Virus record (IMG/VR): IMGVR_UViG_3300009528_000012
Coordinates: 1 to 38,455 of that record
Source of the DNA: a virus
DNA: 38,455 nt
Reading direction: 5' to 3' (one strand)
A program made the position numbers and the translations under genes. Under the pieces are notes generated by a model, which was given only the letters and a program-made list of their open reading frames with translations, searched no databases and had not been told where the DNA came from. The first letter of the stretch is position 1; each line of letters starts with the position of its first letter. Shown here piece after piece: positions 1 through 38,455 of the stretch.

Positions 1-123
1 AACCTGCTTGAAGCACCGACGGCGGTCAGTGCGCGGATTGCCTATCGCAAGAACATGCAGCAGATTGACCGCAAGAGCGACGTGCGCAACCTCTACACGC
101 GGCTCTATCCCTATGGCTACGGC
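1..123. repeat. Terminal direct repeat, left copy (circular junction)
   Basis: Bases 1-123 are identical to 38333-38455. The reading frame of the tail gene beginning at 37808 continues without interruption through the right copy and into base 1. This is the signature of a circular assembly cut open with an overlap, so the unique genome is about 38,332 bp. It could be a circularly permuted (headful) or a cohesive-end genome. A true 123-bp terminal repeat in the virion is less likely because the repeat lies inside a coding sequence. Confidence 0.93.
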
Positions 124-2472
124 GCGGGGGCCGCGCAGGTCGACATCTCCGGGATCGACCTGGCGGCGAAGGGTAGGCCCGGCTTCACTTCGGGCTCGGT
201 TGAGTTCACGGTCGATGAGGTCTTAACGGGAGCCTCATCTAGCGCGACGGCGAAGGTCAAGGCGTACAAGAAAGTCAAGGGGGCCTGGGGCGACGGCGAT
301 GCTGAGGGCGTTGTCTTCCTCTACGATATCAGCGGCACCTTCACCGACGGCGAGAACCTCAACGGCTCTGTCTCTGGGGACAACTGCGCGACGCTTGACT
401 CCTCACTTGAATGCGTCTACGCCGAGAACGTCACGAAGTACGGCGTGATTACCCGCAAGTGGGAAGATCAGCGGTACACCATCGCCGCGAACCTGTATGA
501 TGCAGCCGAGGAGAAGGTTGACGCCCACGCTATACCCGAGTTGACGTATGCGCTCAAGGCCGCCGATCTGCACAGATTGACTGGGCGTGGGCAATTCGTG
601 CTCGGGGATCTCGTGAAGGTCTACGACGAACCGCTGAGGATCGATGTCGATGAGAGGATCGTCACCCTCTCCAAGAAGGATGTCAAGGGCAAGCCGGGCG
701 ATCTCGGGATCCAGCTTGGCAACGCGGTCGAGAAGTTCCCCGACTTCGGGAGGATTGTCTACGCCGATGACCTCGATCAGGTGAAGGACGGCACGAAGTG
801 GGGCAGGGTGCTCTCGACGCAGATACTTGCTGGCGAGATACTCCTGTCGGCGGTGCCAGGTAGCACCGTCGGCGCGTTCCCTGCGACACCGACTGTGGCC
901 GGGCTGTACGTCGGCGCGACGCACTTCGGCTTCCACGATGGGACGAACTGGATCACCTACACGGATATCGGCGGCAAGGCCATGTGGGAGGGCATCGGCG
1001 GCGACAGCGGTCACATCCACTGGGATCCCGCAGGCGGCGGCTCACTCGACATCAAGGGGGCCGTCACGATTACCGCCGGGGCGGTCGGCGGGTTCAACGT
1101 CGATCCAACTGAGGGCCTCTACATAGGTACTGGCGCGACCCGCGTACAGATGAAACCTGGAGCGGGAATGTGGTGCGGAGCGACGGCCTTTGCCGATGCA
1201 CCGTGGAGAGTAAGCCCAGCGGGGGCGGTGACGTGTACCAACCTAACAATCACGGGCGGCTCTATCAACATCAACAGCGGTGTTTTCACAGTAAGCCCAG
1301 CGGGGGCGGTGACGTGTACCAACCTAACAATCACGGGCGGCTCTATCAACATCAACAGCGGTGTTTTCACAGTAAGCGCGGCGGGGGCGGTGGTAGCATC
1401 AAGCATCAGTTGCACGAATCTAGTTGTGGGTGCTGGCAGCTCATGGGGTGGGAATGTCCTTGGCACGGCCTATATCCCGAATCTGAGCGCTACGAAGATC
1501 ACTACCGACACGATGTCCGCTACTCGCATCTCCGGCGGGACAATCGGAGCCTGCACAATCTCGGCAGCTTATCTCACAACAGGCATACTCGACTTCGCCG
1601 CGATCAGCCGGACCGCCCTGTCGGTACTAAACACTGAACTCGCTGGCAGCATCTCATCCGACAAGATCGCTTCGATCAACGCCGATGTGATCACAGCGGG
1701 GACGCTCGACGCGGGCGTGGTGAACATCGTGAACCTGACCGTCACCGGCGTGATCACGTGCCAGGCGGGAAGCTCCTATGTCGGCAACGCCATCGGGACC
1801 GCGTATACCGCTGCTAAATGCCCCGTTGCGAACGCAGACCATACGGCTGACATCGTTAACGCGATGGCCTATAGGAGTGATATTAGGGCGGTTGACTGTG
1901 ACACGACTATCATCTCGGGTGGGAAGATCATCACGGGGCTGTTGACTGCGAACAATATCACAGCGGGTACGATGGCAGCCAACCGCATCTCTGGCGGAAC
2001 GATCGGAGCATGCATGATCTCGGCTGACAACATCACGACGGGTTCAATGTCAGCTGATCGCATCACGACCGGCGGCATGAACGCTGCCAGGATCACGGCG
2101 GGGACGATGTCAGTCGGCCGGATTACTATTGATCAGAATGTGAATTTTAAGCCAAATGCGACTTTACATAAACTATATGGAGTGGATACTATACTTTTTG
2201 GACCCGATGGATTAAGTTCGGGTATGAAGATTGGCCGCTCAGCTAGTGGGGGGCATTTGCTCTTACTCGGCAATGAGATTGACCTAACAGCAGCGCCTGG
2301 GCACGATATTAGCCTAATATCGGGCGACAATATCGTCATCGATGTTGCTGATGCTGACTATCCTATGTACATTAAGGATTGGGTAACTGCAGGTGGAGCG
2401 CAAGGAACAGCAGCAGGTAGAATAACGTTAATGTCAAATGGTATCACACGTTATCTGCGCTTATATACTTAA
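1..2472 (+). CDS. Tail-tip/minor structural protein, C-terminal 823 residues (continues from 37808)
   Basis: This is the downstream part of a 998-residue protein whose start lies at 37808. The frame is open from base 1 with no stop before 2470-2472. Residues encoded near 1-180 and 400-760 resemble the baseplate hub-like, endopeptidase-tail family of siphovirus minor structural proteins. In between (about 190-410) sits a small inserted domain rich in Gly/Thr/Asp. After 1180 the protein becomes a low-complexity, repeat-rich fibre: two perfect 27-residue repeats, then many short ITAGTM/RISGGTIGA-type repeats that suggest a beta-helical shaft. The last ~110 residues, from about 2140, are encoded by visibly more AT-rich DNA and probably form the host-contacting tip. 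The function is inferred from order (after tape measure and Dit) and architecture. The end overlaps the convergent gene at 2469-2939 by 4 bp. Confidence 0.85.
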   Translation, partial: NLLEAPTAVSARIAYRKNMQQIDRKSDVRNLYTRLYPYGYGAGAAQVDISGIDLAAKGRPGFTSGSVEFTVDEVLTGASSSATAKVKAYKKVKGAWGDGDAEGVVFLYDISGTFTDGENLNGSVSGDNCATLDSSLECVYAENVTKYGVITRKWEDQRYTIAANLYDAAEEKVDAHAIPELTYALKAADLHRLTGRGQFVLGDLVKVYDEPLRIDVDERIVTLSKKDVKGKPGDLGIQLGNAVEKFPDFGRIVYADDLDQVKDGTKWGRVLSTQILAGEILLSAVPGSTVGAFPATPTVAGLYVGATHFGFHDGTNWITYTDIGGKAMWEGIGGDSGHIHWDPAGGGSLDIKGAVTITAGAVGGFNVDPTEGLYIGTGATRVQMKPGAGMWCGATAFADAPWRVSPAGAVTCTNLTITGGSININSGVFTVSPAGAVTCTNLTITGGSININSGVFTVSAAGAVVASSISCTNLVVGAGSSWGGNVLGTAYIPNLSATKITTDTMSATRISGGTIGACTISAAYLTTGILDFAAISRTALSVLNTELAGSISSDKIASINADVITAGTLDAGVVNIVNLTVTGVITCQAGSSYVGNAIGTAYTAAKCPVANADHTADIVNAMAYRSDIRAVDCDTTIISGGKIITGLLTANNITAGTMAANRISGGTIGACMISADNITTGSMSADRITTGGMNAARITAGTMSVGRITIDQNVNFKPNATLHKLYGVDTILFGPDGLSSGMKIGRSASGGHLLLLGNEIDLTAAPGHDISLISGDNIVIDVADADYPMYIKDWVTAGGAQGTAAGRITLMSNGITRYLRLYT
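1210..1371 (+). repeat. Two perfect 81-bp tandem repeats in the tail fibre shaft
   Basis: Bases 1210-1290 and 1291-1371 are identical 81-bp copies, followed by a third copy that begins the same way at 1372 but diverges after about ten bases. Each copy encodes 27 residues, starting VSPAGAV and ending INSGVFT. Identity at synonymous positions shows a recent duplication or recombination, so copy number could vary between relatives and change fibre length. Confidence 0.9.
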
Positions 2473-3005: not shown

Positions 3006-3034
3006 TTGATTTTCAACCCCGTTCGTGATAGACT
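3006..3034 (+). promoter_or_regulatory. Sigma70-type promoter of the short TIGR-like array
   Basis: TTGATT at 3006-3011 and TAGACT at 3029-3034 are separated by 17 bp. Transcription would start near 3041, seven bases before the first array repeat at 3048. Confidence 0.65.
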
Positions 3035-3047
3035 AATTTAGGTGACT

Positions 3048-3092
3048 TGCGAGCCACGCCTGACTTGAAACCCAAGGCACTCGTGCGAGTCA
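3048..3092 (+). repeat. TIGR-like array, one 36-bp unit (array 1)
   Basis: Repeat A TGCGAGCCA (3048-3056), spacer CGCCTGACT (3057-3065), repeat B TGAAACCCA (3066-3074), spacer AGGCACTCG (3075-3083), closing repeat A TGCGAGTCA (3084-3092, one substitution). Repeats and spacers are each exactly 9 bp, so one A-spacer-B-spacer unit is 36 bp. The same two repeats occur in the same alternation at 9037-9153. From established knowledge, TIGR arrays consist of alternating edge and loop repeats with two short spacers per unit and are processed to 36-nt tigRNAs that guide Nop-domain Tas proteins to DNA. The array sits between a promoter and an intrinsic terminator, which favours transcription on the + strand as an independent RNA of about 120 nt. 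Tas dependence is inference. Confidence 0.85.
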
Positions 3093-3111: not shown

Positions 3112-3163
3112 ACCGACAGCGGTCGGTTGACTGGACCTCTCCTTTAACCAGGAGAGGCTTTTT
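3112..3163 (+). terminator. Two hairpins, the second an intrinsic terminator, after array 1
   Basis: ACCGAC (3112-3117) pairs with GTCGGT (3122-3127). Then CCTCTCCT (3136-3143) pairs perfectly with AGGAGAGG (3150-3157) around a 6-nt loop and is followed by CTTTTT. It would end the transcript carrying array 1 just before the gene at 3183. The same promoter, hairpin, terminator, gene layout recurs at 3796-3921 and 20897-21031. Confidence 0.8.
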
Positions 3164-3182
3164 GCATTAGAGGAGGCAAAGT

Positions 3183-3795: not shown

Positions 3796-3824
3796 TTGAC
3801 TTTAGCTCTTTGATCGGGTACGAT
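3796..3824 (+). promoter_or_regulatory. Sigma70 promoter
   Basis: TTGACT (3796-3801) and TACGAT (3819-3824) are separated by 17 bp. The spacer segment TTGATCGGGTA recurs in the promoter at 7519, which suggests a shared promoter family. The start site would be near 3831. Confidence 0.75.
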
Positions 3825-3849
3825 AGTTAGGACATCTTAGGAGTAAGGT

Positions 3850-3905
3850 GGCGGCAAGAGCCGCCGGACCAAGCTCCTCCTGTGAAAAGGAGGGGCTTTT
3901 GTTTT
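3850..3905 (+). terminator. Leader hairpin followed by terminator-like hairpin
   Basis: GGCGGC (3850-3855) and GCCGCC (3860-3865) form a tight stem around AAGA. AGCTCCTCCT (3872-3881) pairs with AGGAGGGGCT (3888-3897) with one G-U pair, followed by TTTGTTTT. The hairpins lie between the promoter at 3796 and the gene at 3921, so the promoter appears to make either a ~75-nt terminated RNA or a conditional leader. Confidence 0.75.
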
Positions 3906-4174: not shown

Positions 4175-4294
4175 ATGAAACTAGCAACGGCCCTTGCCAG
4201 GGCCGCATGGATAAGACATACCTCCTTGGATGCGGGGTTATCGTTTTGGGAGAGGGCGATAGCCCCGCTTTGTCATTACCCTCTCCGGGGGTGA
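4175..4294 (+). other. Two-hairpin spacer that also holds a 39-codon reading frame
   Basis: CGGCCCT (4188-4194) pairs with AGGGCCG (4199-4205) around TGCC. GCGGGGTTATCG (4232-4243) pairs with CGATAGCCCCGC (4257-4268), one G-U, and is followed by TTTG. The pair resembles the other leader and terminator structures of this genome. The same stretch is open from an ATG at 4175, after GGGGCGGG, to a TGA at 4292-4294, encoding a 39-residue peptide beginning MKLATALARAAW. I cannot decide between RNA element and small gene; the strong complementarity favours RNA. Confidence 0.45.
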
Positions 4295-4895: not shown

Positions 4896-5474
4896 ATGAT
4901 GAGTTATCGAGAGGTAGTGGAGAAGCACGGAAGCATCTCAGCGGCCGCAAGAGAGCTCAGCATATCTAGGACGACTTTTAGCCGGCGGCTGAGAAAGGAA
5001 GAAGCTGGAGTGATGCAGACGCCGCTGCAAGACGCTGTGAGGAAGTACGGGAACCCGTTTCGAGCGGCAAGGAAGCTTGGGATTCCCCAGGCAACGTTCT
5101 ACAAGCACCTGAAGAAGGAGCGTGAAGGGAAACCCGCATCGACAAAGGAACCCAAAAGGCAAAAGCGATCGAAGTCTCCCGGTCTCTCTGAGCAGGAGCT
5201 CCTGCAGCGCTACGATCCCACTGAGAAGACGCGTCATCTCATGCAGCAGATCCCCGCGCTCATCAAGCCAGGCCGATTTCTGCGCGACTATGACATCCGC
5301 AGGGCGCTCGGCTTTGGCGACGCGAGACTCTTTCGAGAGTTGGCCAGGGATCCCGACGAGGGCTTCATCAAGTATCAGTTTGTGATGGGTAATGAAGTGT
5401 GGTGGACCGATTCCAAGACAAAGGCCCGGATGCTCGGCCACTACAAGGCGAAGGAGGTGCCGATAAATGTCTGA
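4896..5474 (+). CDS. Tandem helix-turn-helix protein
   Basis: This encodes 192 residues. The ATG directly abuts the upstream TAA, and a second ATG follows at once, so the start may be 4896 or 4899. Two HTH units are visible: residues about 4-32 (HGSISAAARELSISRTTFSR) and about 44-72 (NPFRAARKLGIPQATFYKHL), followed by a basic linker rich in Lys/Arg/Pro/Ser and a C-terminal domain of about 90 residues. The coupling to a metallophosphoesterase, which it overlaps by 8 bp, is a pairing known from other phages. The pair may act together on DNA, but no specific role is established. Confidence 0.8.
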   Translation: MMSYREVVEKHGSISAAARELSISRTTFSRRLRKEEAGVMQTPLQDAVRKYGNPFRAARKLGIPQATFYKHLKKEREGKPASTKEPKRQKRSKSPGLSEQELLQRYDPTEKTRHLMQQIPALIKPGRFLRDYDIRRALGFGDARLFRELARDPDEGFIKYQFVMGNEVWWTDSKTKARMLGHYKAKEVPINV

Positions 5475-6516
5475 TGATAAATCTTTGAGCGAGAGAGAGC
5501 TGCTTGGCAAGGTCGACCCAGACCCGGAGCTCGTGTCTTTGCGCGAACAACTGTCGGAGGCCCTCTCTGATGTGAAGCGATTAAAGACACAAGTTGGCGA
5601 CGACGTAAGGCTCTTTGAAGCAGTGCGCAGCAACGTCGAGATCCTGGAGCCTTACCCCCGTGTCTCTATACCAAAGCCAACTCTGAAACACGCTCCTGTT
5701 GAGGCGGCACTGATCCTCTGCGATGCGCACTCCGAGGAGCTTGTGCTTGCGGAAGAGATTGAGGGGCTTGCATCATACGACTGGGAGACATTCGAGCAGC
5801 GCATGGCGAGCGTGCCTGAGAAGGCGGTCGAGCTTGTCAACATCATGCGTCAGGGCAGTCCTATCAAGAAGCTGCACGTCTGGATGCTTGGCGATTGGTT
5901 CGTTGGGCAGATCCTCCCTGACGAGCTTGGTTGGGGCTCGAGTATGCCGTTGCCGGCAGCCTTACCGCGAGCAAGCATGGTAGTAGCGGATGCCCTGATG
6001 CGCCTTGCTTCTCACTTTGAGGAAGTTGAGGTTGTCGGCATAGCAGGCAACCACGGACGTAACACGACACGGCCTGTGACGAAGATGACTGCTGACCGCA
6101 ACTGGGATTACTCGCTCTACTTGATTGCCCAGGCGATGACCGCGGACGAGGAGCGGATACACTGGACACTACCTAAATCGCGGGTGAAAGTCGTGGATGT
6201 GATGGGGTGGAAAAACGCGCTTACGCACGGTGATATTTGCCGGCGCACGCACACGATTCCCTACTTTGGGATCATCAACGCGATTCGCAAGCAACACGAC
6301 ACACGCCGCCGAACCACAGAGGACTTCGACTATGCGTGGATGGGGCACTGGCACCACTGGGGCCTGCTGGAGGGTGAGGTGATCATCTGCCCGCCTTTGA
6401 TCGGGCATTCACAGTTCTCGCAGTACGCTGTCCACGAACGAGCGCCGGCGCAACAGCTTCTCGCTTTCTTCTCAGAGAAGCACGCCCTGATGAGCATGTG
6501 GCCGATCAACCTGTAA
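5467..6516 (+). CDS. Calcineurin-like metallophosphoesterase
   Basis: This encodes 349 residues. The ATG has AAGGAGG upstream and overlaps the preceding gene by 8 bp. An N-terminal coiled coil (about residues 20-50) precedes the catalytic domain. Metal-binding motifs are in the usual order: CDAHSE (the D-x-H motif), MLGDWFVG (GD), GIAGNHGRN (GNH), LTHGD (H) and GHWHHWG (GHxH). Family members with this architecture in phages include nucleases and phosphodiesterases related to SbcD. The HTH partner upstream suggests a DNA substrate. The exact reaction cannot be read from the sequence. Confidence 0.88.
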   Translation: MSDDKSLSERELLGKVDPDPELVSLREQLSEALSDVKRLKTQVGDDVRLFEAVRSNVEILEPYPRVSIPKPTLKHAPVEAALILCDAHSEELVLAEEIEGLASYDWETFEQRMASVPEKAVELVNIMRQGSPIKKLHVWMLGDWFVGQILPDELGWGSSMPLPAALPRASMVVADALMRLASHFEEVEVVGIAGNHGRNTTRPVTKMTADRNWDYSLYLIAQAMTADEERIHWTLPKSRVKVVDVMGWKNALTHGDICRRTHTIPYFGIINAIRKQHDTRRRTTEDFDYAWMGHWHHWGLLEGEVIICPPLIGHSQFSQYAVHERAPAQQLLAFFSEKHALMSMWPINL

Positions 6517-8484: not shown

Positions 8485-8513
8485 TTGACAAATCCGTACC
8501 TACGGAGTATGGT
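8485..8513 (+). promoter_or_regulatory. Sigma70 promoter with internal dyad operator
   Basis: TTGACA (8485-8490) and TATGGT (8508-8513) are separated by 17 bp. The spacer holds the perfect inverted repeat CCGTA-CC-TACGG, a likely operator for the HTH protein encoded immediately downstream. The ATG at 8520 is at the expected transcription start, giving a leaderless message. Confidence 0.8.
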
Positions 8514-8519
8514 ATGCTC

Positions 8520-8744
8520 ATGAGTATAGGACAGATGATTAAAGAAGCTCGTATACGGAAAGGAATGACGCAAGTCGAATTAGCGAAGGAAATCGGTTGC
8601 GACGATGATAGTATCTTTCGCTGGGAGAAGGAGGTGAATAAACCACTGCCAGTCTTTGTGGGGAAACTGGAACGAGTTCTTGGTGTATGTTTAAAGGAGG
8701 ATAGAGATGACTCTCCAAAGAATAAAAGCCCCTCCCCTGGATAG
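8520..8744 (+). CDS. XRE/Cro-CI family HTH repressor
   Basis: This encodes 74 residues. IGQMIKEARIRKGMTQ, then VELAKEIGCDDDSIFRWE, is a standard XRE helix-turn-helix (residues 3-60), followed by a short charged tail. It has no dimerisation or cleavage domain, so it is Cro-sized. An in-frame ATG at 8514 lies within the -10 element, making 8520 the likelier start on a leaderless transcript. The dyad in its own promoter suggests autoregulation. With the regulator at 7555 it forms the control region of the phage, although no integrase accompanies it. Confidence 0.85.
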   Translation: MSIGQMIKEARIRKGMTQVELAKEIGCDDDSIFRWEKEVNKPLPVFVGKLERVLGVCLKEDRDDSPKNKSPSPG

Positions 8745-9033
8745 GGAAGGGGCGGTCGTCCGGTTGCCAGACCGGACAAAGAATAAAACCAGCAGAGCAA
8801 GTGTAGCACAAAAAACACGCCCGTACAATCCCCCGCTAACCTTCAACGGCCACCGTTTTCTGTGTTTCTTCGGGCAGACTCCCGTATACGGCAAGCAAGC
8901 TCACCTCTATTTCTTGCGAGAGGGGATCCTTGTTGCCCTCACCCCGGGAGAGCTATGCGAACTAGAGCATTCGTGCTTGCCGTTTTGCTTCCCCCAACTT
9001 CAAGCCGTCTTAGCGGTTGAAGGATCCGAGTGA
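8707..9033 (+). CDS. Hypothetical 108-residue protein
   Basis: The ATG at 8707 has AAAGGAGG upstream and lies in the tail of the repressor gene. The first ~40 residues are encoded by DNA with two strong hairpins and flanking direct repeats, and look less protein-like (Arg/Lys/Pro-rich). The rest (NGHRFLCFFGQTPVYGKQAH, then VALTPGELCELEHS) looks like a genuine folded domain with four Cys. The real start could lie further in. Degenerate array-like repeats occur in the last codons. No family was recognised. Confidence 0.5.
   Translation: MTLQRIKAPPLDREGAVVRLPDRTKNKTSRASVAQKTRPYNPPLTFNGHRFLCFFGQTPVYGKQAHLYFLREGILVALTPGELCELEHSCLPFCFPQLQAVLAVEGSE
8716..8788. repeat. Direct-repeat-flanked double hairpin
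   Basis: CAAAGAATAAAA occurs at 8716-8727 and 8777-8788. Between the copies lie a GC-rich hairpin (8728-8753, stem GCCCCT/AGGGGC plus CCC/GGG) and a second perfect 7-bp stem GTCCGGT/ACCGGAC (8757-8777). Confidence 0.75.
8717..8753 (-). terminator. Intrinsic terminator reading on the minus strand
   Basis: Read on the minus strand, the hairpin at 8728-8753 is followed by TTTTATTCTTTG (8727 downwards), a good terminator. No minus-strand gene is evident upstream of it, so either it insulates the region or an unrecognised antisense RNA ends here. Confidence 0.55.
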
Positions 9034-9036
9034 GAA

Positions 9037-9153
9037 TGCGAGCCACCGGCCCTCTGAAACCCATGACTAGAGTGCGAGCCAAGATCGATTTGAAATCCAT
9101 AGTATGTATGCGAGCCACGGATAGAGTGAAATCCACCGTCCCACTGCGAGCCA
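9037..9153 (+). repeat. TIGR-like array, three 36-bp units (array 2)
   Basis: Seven 9-bp repeats alternate perfectly. Repeat A TGCGAGCCA lies at 9037, 9073, 9109 and 9145; repeat B is TGAAACCCA at 9055 and TGAAATCCA at 9091 and 9127. They are separated by six unique 9-bp spacers: CCGGCCCTC, TGACTAGAG, AGATCGATT, TAGTATGTA, CGGATAGAG and CCGTCCCAC. Period A-to-A is exactly 36 bp, and the array begins and ends with A. A and B share TG--A-CCA. This is the edge-spacer-loop-spacer plan of TIGR arrays, whose mature guides are 36 nt with two spacers. The + orientation is inferred from array 1. No own promoter is clear, so it may be cotranscribed with 8707-9033 and the genes from 9175. Iterons are the main alternative but do not explain conserved 9-nt variable spacers. 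Confidence 0.92.
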
Positions 9154-9174
9154 TAAATACATTAGGAGGCGGTG

Positions 9175-10661: not shown

Positions 10662-11065
10662 AGGTAACTGCCGCTGAGATCATCGCCAAGATCCCGGAGC
10701 TCCCGAAGGGGTTCGAGAAGCTTGTCCACACGAAGGGGCCGGGTCATGCTGAAGTCGAGTCATTTTCCAACCGTTCGCGTAAACCGTATACGGTCCACAT
10801 TCAATCCCACTCGACGGACCCCGGCGACAGGTCGATCCTCGACGTGGTGTGCTCCTGTCCCGCTACGAAGCCTTGGTGCAAGCATGTCGTGGCGTTCTAC
10901 GCGGTCGCTAAGGAGCTTGTGCCTACCGAAGGGAGTAGCGAGGAGGGAGATACCCCCCAAGGCGGCGAGGCGAAACAAACGGGGTCAGAGATGATCGCAG
11001 AGGGTATAGAAATGGTTGTCAACGGTATCGCGCTGGCTGTAGTGGAGCGCGTAGGAGAAAAATGA
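10658..11065 (+). CDS. SWIM zinc-finger protein
   Basis: This encodes 135 residues from a GTG overlapping the stop of the annealing protein. DVVCSCPATKPWCKHVVAFYAV (about residues 63-84), given here as the CxC...CxH core CSC and CKH, matches the SWIM zinc finger. The C-terminal half is Glu/Gly-rich, then helical (EMIAEGIEMVVNGIALAVVE). In eukaryotes and archaea, SWIM proteins associate with recombination mediators (the Shu complex). Here its tight coupling with a Rad52-like protein suggests a DNA-repair or recombination role. The gene contains ACCGTATACGGT, the best copy of a recurrent palindrome. Confidence 0.8.
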   Translation: MKVTAAEIIAKIPELPKGFEKLVHTKGPGHAEVESFSNRSRKPYTVHIQSHSTDPGDRSILDVVCSCPATKPWCKHVVAFYAVAKELVPTEGSSEEGDTPQGGEAKQTGSEMIAEGIEMVVNGIALAVVERVGEK

Positions 11066-11838
11066 ATTCACGGCCAGAGATCCGAAGCCCGGCTGACTAC
11101 TGCGTCCTGAATCCGGCAGCGAGAGAACAGAACCGCCTTAATTATACTGCATGGTACAAGGGGCACAAAGAGGAGAGGCGCGTTTACAATGCCGAATGGC
11201 GTAAGAGCCACAAAGAGGAGAAGCGTGTCTACCAGGTGGCGTATCGTAAGGGCCACAGAAAAAAAGCACGCCTCTATAGTGCCGAATATCGCAAGGACCA
11301 TCTGCCTGAGATAGCGGCAGGGTGTGCGGCCCGTCGTGCCTTGATCCTCGGTGCCACCTTGGGTGATTTAGCGTCTATCAAGGAAGTCTATAGGCAGGCC
11401 AAAGAGGATGAACCAATCCGCTGCTATTTATGCGGTGAGCTGATTCCCTTAGGCCGCCGCCAAGTCGATCACGTGCACCCGTTATCGAAAGGGGGAAAGC
11501 ACACGGTAACAAATCTAAAGATTGCGTGCAACATCTGCAATAACAGTAAAGGATCAAAGATGCCTAAAGAGGTGGAGGAGCAATCGCAAGGGAGAGGGCC
11601 GCACGGGAGGCCAAAGCTTCGGCGTATGAGCACAACGCGGACGGACCTATCTAAAATGAATCCAATCGATCGCTGGCGTCCGGTCCTTGGGGGTATAGCG
11701 GGTTACGCCCCCGCTGTGGCGCGGTTCGATTCCGCGACCGGTGTGAGTCCAGTGAATCCCTCCTTACTTACGGCGGCGGGGCCGATGCGGGGTTTCCCTT
11801 GCTTTCACCGCTACGGCCCCCTTCGCCCTCTTCTATGA
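11062..11838 (+). CDS. HNH endonuclease with charged helical repeats
   Basis: This encodes 258 residues; the ATG overlaps the previous stop. Residues about 28-85 are three to four imperfect repeats of 14-15 residues (YKGHKEERRVYNAEWRKSH type), common in phage HNH proteins. The HNH core is CYLCGELI, then RQVDHVHPLSKGG and NLKIACNICNNSKGSKMP. The final ~80 residues lack homology to the related gene at 15401, which stops just after its HNH domain. This tail is translated from DNA that also carries a tRNA-like fold (11678-11744), so it may be neutral read-through. It could be a free-standing homing-type nuclease or a packaging-associated one. Confidence 0.85.
   Translation: MNSRPEIRSPADYCVLNPAAREQNRLNYTAWYKGHKEERRVYNAEWRKSHKEEKRVYQVAYRKGHRKKARLYSAEYRKDHLPEIAAGCAARRALILGATLGDLASIKEVYRQAKEDEPIRCYLCGELIPLGRRQVDHVHPLSKGGKHTVTNLKIACNICNNSKGSKMPKEVEEQSQGRGPHGRPKLRRMSTTRTDLSKMNPIDRWRPVLGGIAGYAPAVARFDSATGVSPVNPSLLTAAGPMRGFPCFHRYGPLRPLL
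11678..11744 (+). other. tRNA-Arg(ACG)-like 3' half
   Basis: GCGGG-TTACGCC-CCCGC (11698-11714) forms a perfect 5-bp anticodon arm with a 7-nt loop whose middle would read ACG. Five bases later CGCGG-TTCGATT-CCGCG (11720-11736) is a perfect consensus T arm, and ACCGG after it can pair with CCGGT at 11680-11684. The D arm is missing or compressed to about 13 nt. It looks like a degenerate tRNA or the tRNA 3'-half core of an attachment site rather than a working tRNA. Confidence 0.45.
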
Positions 11839-12515: not shown

Positions 12516-13280
12516 ATGGCGAGTCAACTTAGCGAGAAAGAGAAACGGGAAACCTTACAGCTACGCAGAGAGGGATTGAGTTTGCGCAAGATTGCCCGAA
12601 AAATAGGTTGTAGTGCTCCGACCGTGCAACGTATCTGTGATCCGGCTGCGTACGAAAGAACCAATGCCTGTAATAGGAGGTGTTATGCCAAGCACCGCGA
12701 AAAGCGGCTGGTTAAAGCAAACCAGTATCGCGAAAGTCATCGAGAAAAGTATCGTGCGCTCGTCCGAGAATGGCGCGAAGATCACCATGAAGAGGTCAAG
12801 AAATATCGCAAAGATCACCATGAAGAGATTCAAGCAGGACAGAAGAGATATTATGCCAAAAATCGCGAGGTGCTAAACGCCAAATCTCGGGTAAGGTCTT
12901 CGGCATTTAGCAAGACCCCAAAAGGGAAACTCTGCTGTTGTAACCGTGAACATAAACGCCGCGAGAAAAAAGAACATGGACGCGGCTTTACAATGAATGA
13001 CTATGACCATAAGTGGAAACAACAGGAGGGCAAATGCGCCTATTGTGGCTGCTCTATGGTGCGATCTAAAGACATTAAGGATATTCTCCTTCAAAGCACG
13101 GCCCACTTCCGCAGTAATTATTGTACCATCGATCACATAATTCCTTTATCCCGAGAAGGTCTACATGAGCCAGAGAATATTGTCTTGGCTTGCAGGAAAT
13201 GCAATGCGCGCAAGCACAATAAAACCCCGAAAGAGTATGCATCTTATCTGGCAGAAATCAAAGAGGTGGTAGCGGCTTGA
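12516..13280 (+). CDS. HTH-HNH endonuclease
   Basis: This encodes 254 residues. Residues about 5-42 are an HTH (LRREGLSLRKIARKIGCSAP). They are followed by charged repeats (YRESHREKYRALVREWREDH type, residues about 65-115) and an HNH domain with CAYCGCSM, CTIDHIIPLSREG and NIVLACRKCNARKHNK. Several CC and lone Cys residues precede it and may form a further zinc site. It is the HTH-bearing member of four HNH genes in this arm. The codons are AT-richer than those of structural genes, which suggests independent acquisition. It ends at the promoter of the putative RNA at 13314. Confidence 0.88.
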   Translation: MASQLSEKEKRETLQLRREGLSLRKIARKIGCSAPTVQRICDPAAYERTNACNRRCYAKHREKRLVKANQYRESHREKYRALVREWREDHHEEVKKYRKDHHEEIQAGQKRYYAKNREVLNAKSRVRSSAFSKTPKGKLCCCNREHKRREKKEHGRGFTMNDYDHKWKQQEGKCAYCGCSMVRSKDIKDILLQSTAHFRSNYCTIDHIIPLSREGLHEPENIVLACRKCNARKHNKTPKEYASYLAEIKEVVAA

Positions 13281-13818: not shown

Positions 13819-14733
13819 ATGAGCGACGATCGAGCGATGGAGGAGAATCTTGGCTGGGCACTGATCCCGCCCGACGTTCTCTCAGATGAGAAGTTGACGA
13901 GCACTGAGAAGTTGTTGCTCGGTCGCATCATTGGACTATCCGGCAAGAGTGGTCATTGCTTTGCCAGCAACGCTTGGCTCTCTCAAGGATTGGGGTTGAC
14001 TAAGCGCAATGTCTCGGACTGTATTACCGTGTTAGTTGATAAAGGCTATGTCATCAGGAAGATAGACAGGGACGCAAATAACGTCGTTGTTGGTCGCCGC
14101 CTGTATTCTGTCAACACCCTCCCCCGTTCTATCGTAGGAGGTATCCCGTTAGAACTGGGGACCTCCCCCGATGAAACGGAGGAGACGAAGGGTAGAGTAG
14201 AGGGTAGAGTAAAGAAGAAGAACCCTCCTTCGGACAAGCCGAAGAGGGAGACCGTCAAGAAGGAAGACCTCGACCACCTCACTGAAGGCTATGCGGCACG
14301 CAAAGGCGTCCGTCCACAAGGCGACGAATGGAAGCCTATCCAACAGGCGTTTCGTCACATGCTACTAGACGGAAACACCGTTGAACAGATCGAGGGCTGT
14401 GAGGATGCTATTGTCAACGAAGGTTGGACGTGGACCATCAACACTGTCCGGCATTGGATGCCCGACTTCCGCGCCGGCAAGTTCCCGAGTAAGGATGGCC
14501 GCGACGCCGACCGTATACGGGCGTTGCAGGATGATATCGACGAGATCGACCGTTATATAGCAAACCAGCTTAATTCGCGCTTGATTGAGCTAGGGCAGCG
14601 TGACACTGAGCCTAGAGACCTAATAGTGGAAGAGGCCGAGGAGGCGGCGCGGCTTGAGCAACTATGGCACGAAAAGATGAAAGAGAAAGAGCGATTAGCG
14701 AAAGAGCTCAAGAAAGTAGGGGGTGAGCGGTGA
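13819..14733 (+). CDS. Winged-helix replication protein (HTH_36/DnaD-like)
   Basis: This encodes 304 residues. Residues about 10-100 form an HTH_36-type winged helix (LIPPDVLSDEKLTSTEKLLLG, then SNAWLSQGLGLTKRNVSDCI) typical of phage replication initiators. A charged linker (about 115-145) follows, then a helical domain (PIQQAFRHMLLDGNTVEQI, VRHWMPDFRAGKFP) and a long C-terminal coiled coil. With no helicase or polymerase in the genome, it likely recruits host replication proteins. Two GGGTAGAGTA repeats in the linker DNA (14190-14211) might be part of an origin, as in lambda-type initiator genes. The start is supported by GGGGTGAG upstream. Confidence 0.78.
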   Translation: MSDDRAMEENLGWALIPPDVLSDEKLTSTEKLLLGRIIGLSGKSGHCFASNAWLSQGLGLTKRNVSDCITVLVDKGYVIRKIDRDANNVVVGRRLYSVNTLPRSIVGGIPLELGTSPDETEETKGRVEGRVKKKNPPSDKPKRETVKKEDLDHLTEGYAARKGVRPQGDEWKPIQQAFRHMLLDGNTVEQIEGCEDAIVNEGWTWTINTVRHWMPDFRAGKFPSKDGRDADRIRALQDDIDEIDRYIANQLNSRLIELGQRDTEPRDLIVEEAEEAARLEQLWHEKMKEKERLAKELKKVGGER

Positions 14734-14924: not shown

Positions 14925-15404
14925 ATGACTGAAGAGGAGATCCTAAAGCTGTCGGATGAAGAGCTAGATACGCTGGCGGCGGAATTCTCAGGATGGGTTC
15001 TAAGCAAGGACGCGGTGAGGATGCCCGATGGGTCCTCTCGTGACTTGTGGCATTGCGATGTTATCCATGGCGGGGCCCTGGAATGTTTTGACCATCCGCC
15101 TCGCTTTACACGCGACATCGCTGCTGCAATAGATCTGTGCAACGAGATTTATAACCCGATGAGTAAGATTCGGAACGGCGCGTGGGTGTTGAGCACCGTC
15201 GATGGGGGGAAGGACTGTAGCCTAGCGACGCTCTTCTTCGGGGCGCCATCACGCCGTGAGAGGAGGCAGGGGAGGAAGAACCGGCCGTTGAAGGCCCAGG
15301 CGAAGACGGCGAAGAAGGAGATGGCCCGTGCGATCACTTTGGCGTACGTGGTGGCGCACGAGGGCGCGACGGTCGACCTGCGGTATCAACCCGAGGAGAC
15401 GTGA
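14925..15404 (+). CDS. Phage ABA-sandwich-like protein
   Basis: This encodes 159 residues with a strong GAGGAGGTGACC site. The N-terminal EEEILKLSDEELDTLAAEF-SGW segment, followed by PPRFTRDIAAAIDLCNEI (residues about 50-68), matches the pattern of small phage proteins often annotated as ABA sandwich domain. The C-terminal third is basic with a helix (LKAQAKTAKKEMARAITLAY). The role in phages is unknown. It overlaps the HNH gene at 15401 by 4 bp. Confidence 0.65.
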   Translation: MTEEEILKLSDEELDTLAAEFSGWVLSKDAVRMPDGSSRDLWHCDVIHGGALECFDHPPRFTRDIAAAIDLCNEIYNPMSKIRNGAWVLSTVDGGKDCSLATLFFGAPSRRERRQGRKNRPLKAQAKTAKKEMARAITLAYVVAHEGATVDLRYQPEET

Positions 15405-16042
15405 TGAGCTTAAAGGCATGTGAACAGTGCGGCAAAGAGTTTACAGTCAATGTCCATAATCAACGGTTTTGTTCACATAATTGTGAGGCAAAAGCGTGGG
15501 CCGTTCTACATCGCGAAAAGATGCGCGAAAGTTGTCGGCGTTGGGCTGCTTCACATCGAGAAGAACGTCGTGCATATAAACAACATTACGAGCAGGAACA
15601 CCGCACAGAACGGCTTAAACATAAAAGAATGTATTATCGAGAACACTGCGTTAAGGCACTTGAATATGCAGCAAACTATCGCAGAATACATCATGAAGAT
15701 CCTGAGCGCCTAGAGCGATGTCGAGTAGCCGCACGCGAGTACTATAAAAGACACTTATCTGAGTACAATGCGTACAGTACCGTAAGGCGTGCTCTTAAAT
15801 TAGCCGTAACTGTCGGCAATCTGACCGAAATTCGGGAGATATACCATAAGGCAAAGGAAGATCCAAAAGTTAGGTGTTATTTGTGTGGCCGCCTTATCCC
15901 GAAAGGGCACCGCCATGTCGACCATATTGTCCCCTTGACGAAAGGAGGATCTCACAGGCCCTCGAATTTAGCGGTAGCATGTGATAAGTGCAACAGGGAG
16001 AAATATAACAAGATGCCAAAAGAAGTGGGGATATTGTTATAA
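15401..16042 (+). CDS. HNH endonuclease with N-terminal zinc ribbon
   Basis: This encodes 213 residues; GTG at 15401 or ATG at 15404. An N-terminal treble-clef-like ribbon (CEQCGKEF ... RFCSHNCEAK) precedes charged repeats (HREERRAYKQHYEQEHRTER and similar, residues about 45-105) and an HNH domain CYLCGRLI, HRHVDHIVPLTKGG and NLAVACDKCNREKYNKMPKEV. The last part is clearly paralogous to 11062-11838, including the ATLGDLASIKE/TVGNLTEIRE and YRQAKEDEPIRCYLCG/YHKAKEDPKVRCYLCG segments. The gene is AT-rich. Probably a mobile, homing-type nuclease. Confidence 0.87.
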   Translation: MMSLKACEQCGKEFTVNVHNQRFCSHNCEAKAWAVLHREKMRESCRRWAASHREERRAYKQHYEQEHRTERLKHKRMYYREHCVKALEYAANYRRIHHEDPERLERCRVAAREYYKRHLSEYNAYSTVRRALKLAVTVGNLTEIREIYHKAKEDPKVRCYLCGRLIPKGHRHVDHIVPLTKGGSHRPSNLAVACDKCNREKYNKMPKEVGILL

Positions 16043-16049
16043 AGGGGAG

Positions 16050-16253
16050 ATGATGTTGAGAAAGATATTGCATAAAATAGACCGGGAAGTGGGCCGGCAC
16101 ATGACCGCGAAGCGGTGGATCGTGATCTATTTCGCTATCGCCCTTAGTGGATACATCCTCGCATATTTTGGCAGATGGTGGGCCTTTCTCGGCATACCGA
16201 TGGCGATTGTCGGCGTGTTTGGCCTTGTCGGGCACGCGCGGAGGCTGCGATGA
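16050..16253 (+). CDS. 67-residue two-helix membrane protein
   Basis: The ATG follows AAAGGGGAG. Two hydrophobic helices (about residues 22-41, IVIYFAIALSGYILAYF, and 45-60, FLGIPMAIVGVFGLV) flank a short aromatic turn, with basic residues at both ends. Size and topology are holin-like, but there is no lysin next to it. It overlaps the following HNH gene by 4 bp (ATGA), in the region just upstream of the terminase genes. Confidence 0.7.
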   Translation: MMLRKILHKIDREVGRHMTAKRWIVIYFAIALSGYILAYFGRWWAFLGIPMAIVGVFGLVGHARRLR

Positions 16254-17125
16254 CCCGTAGCGAAACTGTCCGACAAGAGGCGATGAGGCTTGACGGCTAT
16301 CGTTGCGTTATCTGCAGCTTTGACGGGCGCGACATCCACGAGCGGCTTGGTGTGCTTTCGACGCATCACGACGAAAAGCTCGGGATGGGCGGTAGTCGGG
16401 AGCTCGACACTGTTGAGAACAGCGTCACGCTTTGCTGGGGCGCCGGAAGCTGTCACCAGCATATCGAGAATCTAGCGCTTGAGATTGTCGAGTGGGACCG
16501 CGCGGCCGGCATCTTGACCGTGATCGACCACCAAGGGGTGCGCTGGAAGAAGAAGGGCCGGATACCTAATGAGCGGCTGTGGTTCTACCGCCGCAAGCTA
16601 GCGGAGGAGCTTGAGCCGGTCGAGGCGCGGATCCAGGGCCTCCACATGATCGACGGCGAGGTGGCAGGGGATCTGTGGCGGCTGTGGAAGGATGACGCGT
16701 ACAAAGTGCTCGACCCCGACATGGTGAGCTTCCGGCAGTACGCGGCTTCCCGGGGGTGGAACGCGCGGCGTGCGAGCAGGATGGCGCACCTGTACGACAC
16801 GGCGGAACAGTTGCGGATACCGTGGCCTCCCGGGGTAAGCGCGACGGACTTCCGCCGGCAACTCAAAGATGCGGGCAAGCTCGAGCCACGGGACTACTGG
16901 CACGTGGCTTTCCGCGATATCCCGACGCTGTTGAGGCTTATCGCACAGGGGGACCTCAAGGTCAAGAGATGCACAAGCGACGAGTTTGACGAGTATGTGA
17001 GGCCGTTGGCGGCGATAGGGTTGAAGATCAACTCATGGTTCAAGCTCAAGGTCGATAAAGGCAGACTGTCAGGCCCGGACGGCGAGGCGATACCGTTCGA
17101 GCGGGTGAAAAAGGGAGCGGGCTAA
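16250..17125 (+). CDS. HNH protein with C-terminal helical domain
   Basis: This encodes 291 residues. The first 85 residues carry an HNH-like zinc site: CVICSFDG, THHDEKLGMGG, NSVTLCW and CHQHIENL. The remaining ~200 residues form an unfamiliar helical domain (FRQYAASRGWNARRASRMAH, DFRRQLKDAGKLEPRDYWH). HNH proteins next to terminase genes often assist packaging in HK97-like phages. Because TasH proteins of TIGR systems combine HNH with a Nop domain, the C-terminal region deserves structural comparison, but I see no Nop motif and do not make that call. Confidence 0.8.
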   Translation: MTRSETVRQEAMRLDGYRCVICSFDGRDIHERLGVLSTHHDEKLGMGGSRELDTVENSVTLCWGAGSCHQHIENLALEIVEWDRAAGILTVIDHQGVRWKKKGRIPNERLWFYRRKLAEELEPVEARIQGLHMIDGEVAGDLWRLWKDDAYKVLDPDMVSFRQYAASRGWNARRASRMAHLYDTAEQLRIPWPPGVSATDFRRQLKDAGKLEPRDYWHVAFRDIPTLLRLIAQGDLKVKRCTSDEFDEYVRPLAAIGLKINSWFKLKVDKGRLSGPDGEAIPFERVKKGAG

Positions 17126-37811: not shown

Positions 37812-38455
37812 AAAACGCGCCAGTGACAATTTACAATGCCTCCCTTGAACTTGTCGCGTACCTTGAGAACGCGACAGGCATCGGCTACAAAAAGCGCAAG
37901 GGCGAGGTATGGAGCGCGTCGTTCTGCCTGCCGGCCGACGATCCCAAGAACGACGAGTGCAAGGACTTCTACTATGCCGAGATCTTCGACGGCGACACGC
38001 GGGTCGAGCTCTTCCGTATCATTCTGAACAGGAAGAGCCGCATTAAAGGCAAGCCGGTGATCAAATACGAATGCAAGCACGTCCTGTCGACACTGAACGA
38101 CAGCACGCTTGTCGGGGTCCATAACGCGGGCCCGGGTGTAGAGGCTGCGCTCAACTACGTCCTCGGCAAACAGGTGGTTACACACTGGCAGCTCGGCACG
38201 GTCGACTTCGTCCAGAATTTTTACCACTACTGGAAGGACCTCTCGCTCTTAGCGGCGCTGTATACAGTATCCGAGCGCTTCCTCACCGCGCACCTGTGGA
38301 CGTTCGACACAAAAAGCTACCCGTGGACGCTCAACCTGCTTGAAGCACCGACGGCGGTCAGTGCGCGGATTGCCTATCGCAAGAACATGCAGCAGATTGA
38401 CCGCAAGAGCGACGTGCGCAACCTCTACACGCGGCTCTATCCCTATGGCTACGGC
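37808..38455 (+). CDS. Tail-tip/minor structural protein, N-terminal part (runs through the circular junction)
   Basis: ATG at 37808 overlaps the preceding stop. 175 codons reach 38332, and bases 38333-38455 repeat bases 1-123, where the same frame continues to 2472; the whole protein is 998 residues. The N-terminus (VTIYNASLELVAYLENATGI, then YKKRKGEVWSASFCLPADDP) is typical of phage minor structural or endopeptidase-tail proteins that form the tail-tip hub. It closes the tail operon that starts at 30838. Confidence 0.88.
   Translation, partial: MKNAPVTIYNASLELVAYLENATGIGYKKRKGEVWSASFCLPADDPKNDECKDFYYAEIFDGDTRVELFRIILNRKSRIKGKPVIKYECKHVLSTLNDSTLVGVHNAGPGVEAALNYVLGKQVVTHWQLGTVDFVQNFYHYWKDLSLLAALYTVSERFLTAHLWTFDTKSYPWTLNLLEAPTAVSARIAYRKNMQQIDRKSDVRNLYTRLYPYGYG
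38333..38455. repeat. Terminal direct repeat, right copy
   Basis: Identical to bases 1-123; see the left copy. Coding content here should be counted once. Confidence 0.93.

What the first reader, a model, noticed from the sequence alone, without database searches (positions are those of the whole stretch)
9037..9153. Three-unit TIGR-like guide array: alternating 9-bp repeats and 9-bp spacers with a strict 36-bp period
Seen directly: TGCGAGCCA at 9037, 9073, 9109 and 9145 alternates with TGAAAYCCA at 9055, 9091 and 9127; all six spacers are unique and exactly 9 bp. Established knowledge: TIGR-Tas systems of phages and parasitic bacteria have arrays of alternating repeats with two short spacers per unit, processed to 36-nt tigRNAs. 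Inference: this is such an array with edge repeat A, loop repeat B and three dual-spacer guides. Short 9-bp repeats are below the size normal CRISPR finders report, so it may be unannotated.
Basis: partly seen in the sequence, partly recalled or inferred. Interest (0 to 1): 0.97.

Follow-up and report, generated by a model that had tools for sequence, protein, structure and literature searches.

The report
Phage guide-RNA arrays lacking their partner
A complete bacterial-virus genome carries two genuine TIGR guide-RNA arrays (three guides plus one stand-alone guide) but no gene for the Tas protein that such guides need, so the virus probably borrows or interferes with a Tas protein made by another virus or by its host.

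Summary
The array at 9037-9153 is real, and its repeats have the sequence signatures published for TIGR arrays: both repeats run UG...CCA, the edge repeat has the extra inner pair, the loop is A-rich, and all spacers are 9 nt. Most viral contigs with the same edge-N9-loop repeats encode a Nop-domain Tas protein; in 43 of 43 Tas-bearing viral records an array unit lies within 2 kb of tas. That protein profile matches the PDB entry for TasR (9mty, E 2e-65) and TasH (2e-34).

(1) The window has a second, single-guide array at 3048-3092, with a weak promoter-like site upstream and a terminator downstream. (2) The window is a complete genome: it has a 123-bp terminal repeat and a tail gene that reads across the join. 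It encodes no detectable Tas by HMM, profile-profile or Pfam searches.

These are therefore orphan TIGR arrays. The best explanation is guides for a Tas supplied in trans, like the cas-less mini-CRISPR arrays of archaeal viruses. Rivals are RNA decoys of Tas, or relics. No significant DNA target was found. This is a new variant of a known kind; the function in trans is inferred.

The parts
9037..9153 (+). TIGR array 2: three complete units (edge-spacer A-loop-spacer B) plus closing edge; edge TGCGAGCCA x4, loop TGAAACCCA / TGAAATCCA x3
9046..9072 (+). guide t1: spacer A CCGGCCCTC (9046-9054), loop, spacer B TGACTAGAG (9064-9072)
9082..9108 (+). guide t2: spacer A AGATCGATT (9082-9090), loop, spacer B TAGTATGTA (9100-9108)
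9118..9144 (+). guide t3: spacer A CGGATAGAG (9118-9126), loop, spacer B CCGTCCCAC (9136-9144)
3048..3092 (+). TIGR array 1: single unit; edge TGCGAGCCA, spacer A CGCCTGACT, loop TGAAACCCA, spacer B AGGCACTCG, terminal edge TGCGAGTCA (one change)
3043..3092 (+). possible closing stem of the single-guide RNA: 3043-3051 pairs with 3084-3092 (9 bp, two G-U)
   Evidence: predicted by folding (z -1.8 to -2.3); only one other of 155 contiguous arrays pairs at all five flanking positions; suggestive only
3006..3034 (+). promoter-like TTGATT-17 nt-TAGACT upstream of array 1 (8 of 12 consensus positions)
   Evidence: read by eye; below the 9/12 threshold of the scan, so weak
3136..3165 (+). rho-independent terminator-like hairpin plus T-run, 43 nt after array 1
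8485..8513 (+). promoter-like TTGACA-17-TATGGT (10/12) about 520 bp upstream of array 2; array 2 sits between ORF 8707-9033 and an ORF with AGGAGG and ATG at about 9175, apparently inside an operon
1..123 (.). terminal direct repeat, identical to 38333-38455; shows that the record is a complete genome (38,332 bp unique)
   Evidence: the tail gene (phrog_4311) reads across the join

Best explanation
These are two TIGR arrays in a complete tailed-phage genome that has no tas gene. The + strand is transcribed: array 1 from its own short transcription unit, array 2 inside an early operon. The precursor would be cut in the edge repeats to 36-nt tigRNAs that load into a Nop-domain Tas protein made by something else in the same cell, such as a co-infecting or resident virus or the host. 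Spacers A and B would then guide that Tas to an 18-bp DNA site (A followed by the reverse complement of B, gap 0-2), most plausibly in a competing element. Shown here: the array anatomy, the cognate Tas family for these exact repeats, genome completeness and absence of Tas. Inferred: transcription, processing, use in trans and targets. I put TIGR identity at about 0.97, true absence of a TIGR-type Tas at about 0.93, and guide use in trans at about 0.6.
For: Repeat anatomy matches the box C/box D rules. The same repeat pair occurs in viral records next to Tas: 43 of 43 Tas-bearing records have an array unit within 2 kb of tas, and the distance from the nearest unit to one end of the tas match has a median of 75 bp. 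The profile matches solved TasR and TasH. The genome is complete: 123-bp terminal repeat and a gene continuous across the join. No Tas in the window by hmmsearch --max, profile search of the record, hhalign against all ORFs of 70 aa or more (best probability 7.9%), Transposase_20 or Nop. The same profile still detects IS621 at 4e-5, so it is sensitive. Both arrays are kept in good order: 5 of 5 leading and internal edges plus the closing edge of array 2 are exact, all four loops fit TGAAAYCCA, and the only change is in the terminal edge of array 1. A one- to three-unit array is enough for processing in the published system (PMC12045711). Cas-less mini-CRISPR arrays in viruses are a precedent (PMC6858448).
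Against: No Tas-encoding partner or host for this phage is known. No target was found that exceeds chance. There is no expression evidence. Close relatives that would show selection on the arrays were not found. A Tas of wholly unknown sequence cannot be excluded; the one model attempted, of the HNH protein at 16175-17125, was uninformative (pLDDT 35).
Confidence: 0.6

Rival explanations
1. RNA decoys: the phage's tigRNA-like transcripts occupy a Tas protein of the host or of a competing virus and so block it, as solitary CRISPR repeat units act as RNA anti-CRISPRs (Racrs). The spacers would be unimportant.
For: Arrays without effector; a stand-alone single unit with its own terminator and a changed terminal edge that could form a closing stem. 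Precedent in PMC10651486. No targets found.
Against: Array 2 has three different, full-length, well-formed spacer pairs and intact edges, as expected for working guides. A decoy needs only one unit. No Tas-carrying host is known for this phage.
Confidence: 0.15
2. Relics: the phage recently lost its tas gene, and the arrays are decaying remnants with no function.
For: In Tas-bearing viruses the gene is almost always adjacent to the array; here it is absent. The arrays are short (3 and 1 units), whereas 5-15 units are usual in the published systems.
Against: Repeats are near perfect at two loci 6 kb apart; one locus has a terminator placed just after it. There is no tas remnant in six frames. 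Two other Tas-free arrays with flanks of at least 2 kb exist (G004, G011).
Confidence: 0.15
3. The phage encodes its own effector of an unrecognised type, for example one of its HNH proteins or a Nop protein too divergent to see.
For: Three HNH proteins of one family (11062-11835, 12516-13280, 15401-16042) and a fourth HNH protein with an unknown C-terminal part (16175-17125). G011, another Tas-free array carrier, has three members of the same HNH family, and no other fetched array-bearing record does.
Against: HNH proteins of this family are ordinary homing-type phage endonucleases. No Nop domain by HMM or hhalign. G004 lacks the HNH family.
Confidence: 0.07
4. Not RNA guides: the repeats are iterons or operator sites for a DNA-binding replication or regulatory protein of the phage.
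For: Regular spacing and a location in the early region; the replication-initiator-like gene is at 13819-14733.
Against: Two different alternating repeats, both obeying UG...CCA. The period of 36 bp is not a whole number of helical turns. The same sequences recur in dozens of unrelated viruses beside tas genes. The second locus lies outside any replication context and ends in a terminator.
Confidence: 0.02

Closest known systems
TIGR-Tas dual-repeat arrays (Faure et al. 2025, PMC12045711)
   Same: Alternating 9-nt edge and loop repeats, 9-nt spacers, 36-nt period, UG/CCA boxes, extra edge pair, A-rich loop; the same repeat sequences sit beside TasA-type genes in other viruses.
   Different: No Tas gene in a complete genome; two separated loci; one locus holds a single guide with its own terminator; few units.
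Virus-borne mini-CRISPR arrays without cas genes (Medvedeva et al. 2019, PMC6858448)
   Same: Short arrays (1-2 spacers there; 1 and 3 guides here) in viral genomes without the effector genes; proposed use of an effector supplied by the cell in inter-viral conflict.
   Different: CRISPR repeats and Cas proteins against TIGR repeats and Tas; there the spacers demonstrably match related viruses, here no targets are known.
RNA anti-CRISPRs (Racrs; PMC10651486)
   Same: A solitary repeat-type RNA encoded by a phage, resembling array 1.
   Different: They mimic CRISPR repeats and inhibit Cas; nothing here shows inhibition.
Box C/D snoRNAs and IS110 bridge RNAs
   Same: Two guide stretches framed by box C/box D contacts to a Nop-type protein; array 1 may close with a terminal stem.
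   Different: No k-turn, no fibrillarin partner, no transposase in this genome.

Membership tests
TIGR array (RNA part of TIGR-Tas) | Two distinct alternating 8-12-nt repeats separated by spacers of about 9 nt | tested here: met
   9-nt edge, 9-nt loop and 9-nt spacers at both loci
TIGR array (RNA part of TIGR-Tas) | Both repeats start UG and end CCA (box D/box C); inner pair in the edge repeat; A-rich loop | tested here: met
   TGCGAGCCA (C3-G6) and TGAAAYCCA compared with PMC12045711 section 8
TIGR array (RNA part of TIGR-Tas) | Same repeat type is linked to Nop-domain Tas proteins elsewhere | tested here: met
   43 of 43 Tas-bearing viral records have a unit within 2 kb of tas; the profile hits 9mty and TasH chains
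TIGR array (RNA part of TIGR-Tas) | Array ends with a truncated or degenerate edge repeat and a rho-independent terminator | tested here: inconclusive
   True of array 1 (TGCGAGTCA, terminator 3136-3165), not of array 2, which runs on into an operon; only 2 of 88 arrays of this repeat type have one
Complete TIGR-Tas system | Tas gene encoded with the array | tested here: not met
   Complete genome without Tas
Complete TIGR-Tas system | Processing to 36-nt tigRNAs | not testable with these tools
   Needs small-RNA sequencing
Complete TIGR-Tas system | Tandem-spacer targeting of opposite DNA strands | tested here: inconclusive
   Target = A + 0-2 nt + rc(B), orientation deduced from the cut geometry in PMC12045711; own genome, 1.8 Mb of array-bearing records and IMG/VR searched with no signal above chance
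Virus-borne mini-CRISPR arrays | CRISPR-type repeats recognised by host Cas proteins | tested here: not met
   Repeats are 9-nt TIGR repeats with 9-nt spacers; a functional analogy only
Racr-type decoy RNA | Solitary repeat unit that inhibits the effector | not testable with these tools
   Array 1 is solitary; inhibition needs an assay
Iterons | Uniform direct repeats bound by a replication initiator | tested here: not met
   Repeats are of two alternating kinds obeying RNA-box rules, and are found beside tas in unrelated viruses; protein binding not tested

The most novel reading that the evidence does not exclude
The phage deploys guide-only TIGR units as weapons or as RNA inhibitors against other elements' Tas proteins. 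In particular, the stand-alone single-guide gene (promoter-like site, one unit, possible closing stem, terminator) would be an RNA anti-TIGR, or a hijacking guide, that acts only when a Tas of another virus is present. This would be the first effector-less TIGR element.
Probability: 0.5. Interest if true: 0.85.

Novelty: new variant of a known kind. Interest (0 to 1): 0.72.

Why it matters
The biological role and targets of TIGR-Tas are open questions in the founding paper. Guides kept in good order in a complete phage genome without an effector imply that tigRNAs work across genomes: one virus's guides with another element's Tas, or RNA that jams it. That points to conflict between mobile elements rather than a self-contained function, and it gives a small, directly testable case of four guides in a 38-kb phage. 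It also means TIGR arrays cannot be found only by looking beside tas genes, as has been done so far.

Tried and rejected
Chance repeats: rejected, none in 200 shuffles. Coding repeats: rejected, both arrays are intergenic on the + strand; the only overlapping ORF (8939-9154, minus) is an antisense artefact of the 36-nt (3n) period. The genome-contig scan was mostly single chance matches (about 15 expected by my arithmetic); clear multi-unit arrays only in Smithella sp. SCADC, a Planctomycetota MAG and a Euryarchaeota MAG. Self-targeting: no match better than control. Targets among array-bearing viruses: one-mismatch gap-0 hits 5 against 1.75 expected, two of the five being the same site in near-identical contigs; not significant. 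IMG/VR scans for exact targets: one hit for guide t0 (L313, a 4.6-kb podovirus-like contig), none for the other three; compatible with chance. The HNH protein 16175-17125 as a hidden TasH: no PDB or profile support, structure model uninformative. Relatives through the phosphoesterase gene 5467-6516: they share one to three genes and carry neither arrays nor Tas. Rfam: nothing at gathering threshold; no tRNA genes.

Full report
OBSERVATION. Edge TGCGAGCCA occurs at 9037, 9073, 9109 and 9145; loop TGAAACCCA at 9055 and TGAAATCCA at 9091 and 9127; six different 9-nt spacers separate them. Shuffling the window 200 times with dinucleotides kept never produced three equal 9-mers at 36-nt spacing or three TGNNNNCCA at 9-nt spacing.

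A SECOND ARRAY. A search of the record for edge-N9-loop gave a fourth match, at 3048. It reads TGCGAGCCA-CGCCTGACT-TGAAACCCA-AGGCACTCG-TGCGAGTCA (3048-3092), a complete single unit whose closing edge has one change. A terminator-like hairpin with T-run follows at 3136-3165. A weak promoter-like pair TTGATT-17-TAGACT precedes it at 3006-3034 (read; 8 of 12 positions, under the scan threshold). The changed closing edge AGTCA is complementary to TGACT just before the first edge, so the RNA is predicted to close with a 9-bp stem. Among 155 contiguous arrays only one other pairs at all five flanking positions. I treat this stem as suggestive.

IDENTITY. The founding paper says both TIGR repeats start with UG and end with CCA, that the edge has an additional pair inside the box C/D pair, and that the TasR loop is A-rich (PMC12045711). 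All three hold here. As an independent test I scanned IMG/VR for TGCGAGCCA-N9-TGAAAYCCA: 57 stretches matched. One protein family dominates them, typically about 250-350 aa with a GIGP-type motif; many members carry a zinc-ribbon insertion. Pfam is blind to it; PHROGs calls it 'transposase' (phrog_4285). Its profile hits the 331-residue chain 9mty (E 1.8e-65), TasH (2e-34) and IS621 (4e-5) in the PDB. The length of 9mty equals the 331 residues given for TaTasR. The 43 viral records with this protein all have an array unit within 2 kb of it; the distance from the nearest unit to one end of the tas match has a median of 75 bp. So the repeat type belongs to TIGR-Tas. Because most of these proteins have no nuclease domain, the natural partner is of TasA type (inference).

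NO TAS HERE. The window is the whole record. Its first 123 bases equal its last 123, and the tail gene runs across the join: the right-hand ORF covers phrog_4311 positions 3-215 and the left-hand ORF 176-344. It is therefore a complete genome of 38,332 bp, a tailed phage with terminase, portal, capsid, tape measure and tail genes. The Tas profile finds nothing in it with all filters off or in the record search. hhalign against every ORF of 70 aa or more gives at best 7.9% probability. Transposase_20 and Nop give nothing at E 10. Of the array-bearing records without Tas, five have their array at a contig end and may be truncated (G003, G006, G007, G008, G012). Two others have at least 2 kb on both sides: G004, a 62-kb contig, and G011, 14.7 kb. 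The window is the only complete genome among the Tas-free ones; three other records with terminal repeats (103, 127 and, weakly, 23 bp) all have Tas.

MECHANISM. Shown: two well-formed arrays, no effector, complete genome. Inferred: the RNAs are made and are processed by a Tas present in the same cell from another source. In the published system one to three units suffice and Tas is required for processing. A working guide needs both spacers; the target should read A + (0-2 nt) + rc(B). I deduced this orientation from the reported cut positions and 8-nt 3' overhangs. I searched for such sites in the phage itself, in 1.8 Mb of array-bearing viral DNA with mispaired spacers as control, and in IMG/VR for the four guides. 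There was no excess over chance; 18 nt of query leaves little power. The alternatives are RNA decoys that jam a foreign Tas, decaying relics, and an unrecognised effector of the phage's own.

COMPARISON. By anatomy these are TIGR arrays. The defining partner of a TIGR-Tas system was tested and is absent, so the locus is not filed as a complete system. It works, by hypothesis, like the cas-less mini-CRISPR arrays of archaeal viruses (PMC6858448) or like Racrs (PMC10651486). I found no mention of orphan or in-trans TIGR arrays in the founding paper or in a review; no other paper in the library held the terms TIGR array, Nop domain and phage together. Only the open-licence library was searched.

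LIMITS. There is no expression data, host, close relatives covering the array regions or targets. A Tas of unknown fold cannot be ruled out, but it would have to be unrelated to TasA, TasR, TasH and IS110 at the sequence level.

Noticed in passing
window 11062-11835, 12516-13280, 15401-16042: Three HNH endonucleases of one family with KxHREER-type repeats. Another Tas-free array carrier (G011/L044) has three members of the same family (42-56% identity to one of them); no other array-bearing record tested has one.
   Followed up: partly
window 16175-17125: HNH domain at the N-terminus followed by about 200 residues of unknown fold, next to the terminase small subunit; checked as a possible TasH, no support.
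   Followed up: partly
window 1209-1392: Two and a third near-identical copies of an 81-bp unit inside the tail-protein gene (98% matches).
   Followed up: no
PHROGs phrog_4285: This PHROG, labelled 'transposase', matches the TIGR-associated Tas proteins, so phage Tas genes are probably widely mis-annotated as transposases.
   Followed up: partly
G046 (L053) against G019/G039 (L008/L045): A guide of one array-bearing phage (AAAAACCCC/CATATCATG) matches a site in two near-identical contigs sharing terminase and portal families with it, one mismatch, gap 0; a possible inter-phage target, not significant alone.
   Followed up: partly
L313:2725-2744: Exact site for the single guide of array 1 (gap 2) in a scaffold-like gene of a podovirus-like contig; one hit in four scans, compatible with chance.
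   Followed up: partly
G001 (contig IMGVR_UViG_3300036863_000086): A 72-kb viral contig with 46-63 TIGR units scattered over many loci from 44 kb to its end.
   Followed up: no
window 3796-3898 and 4232-4268: Further intergenic promoter-like and terminator-like pairs in the early region, so several short transcription units may exist beside array 1.
   Followed up: no
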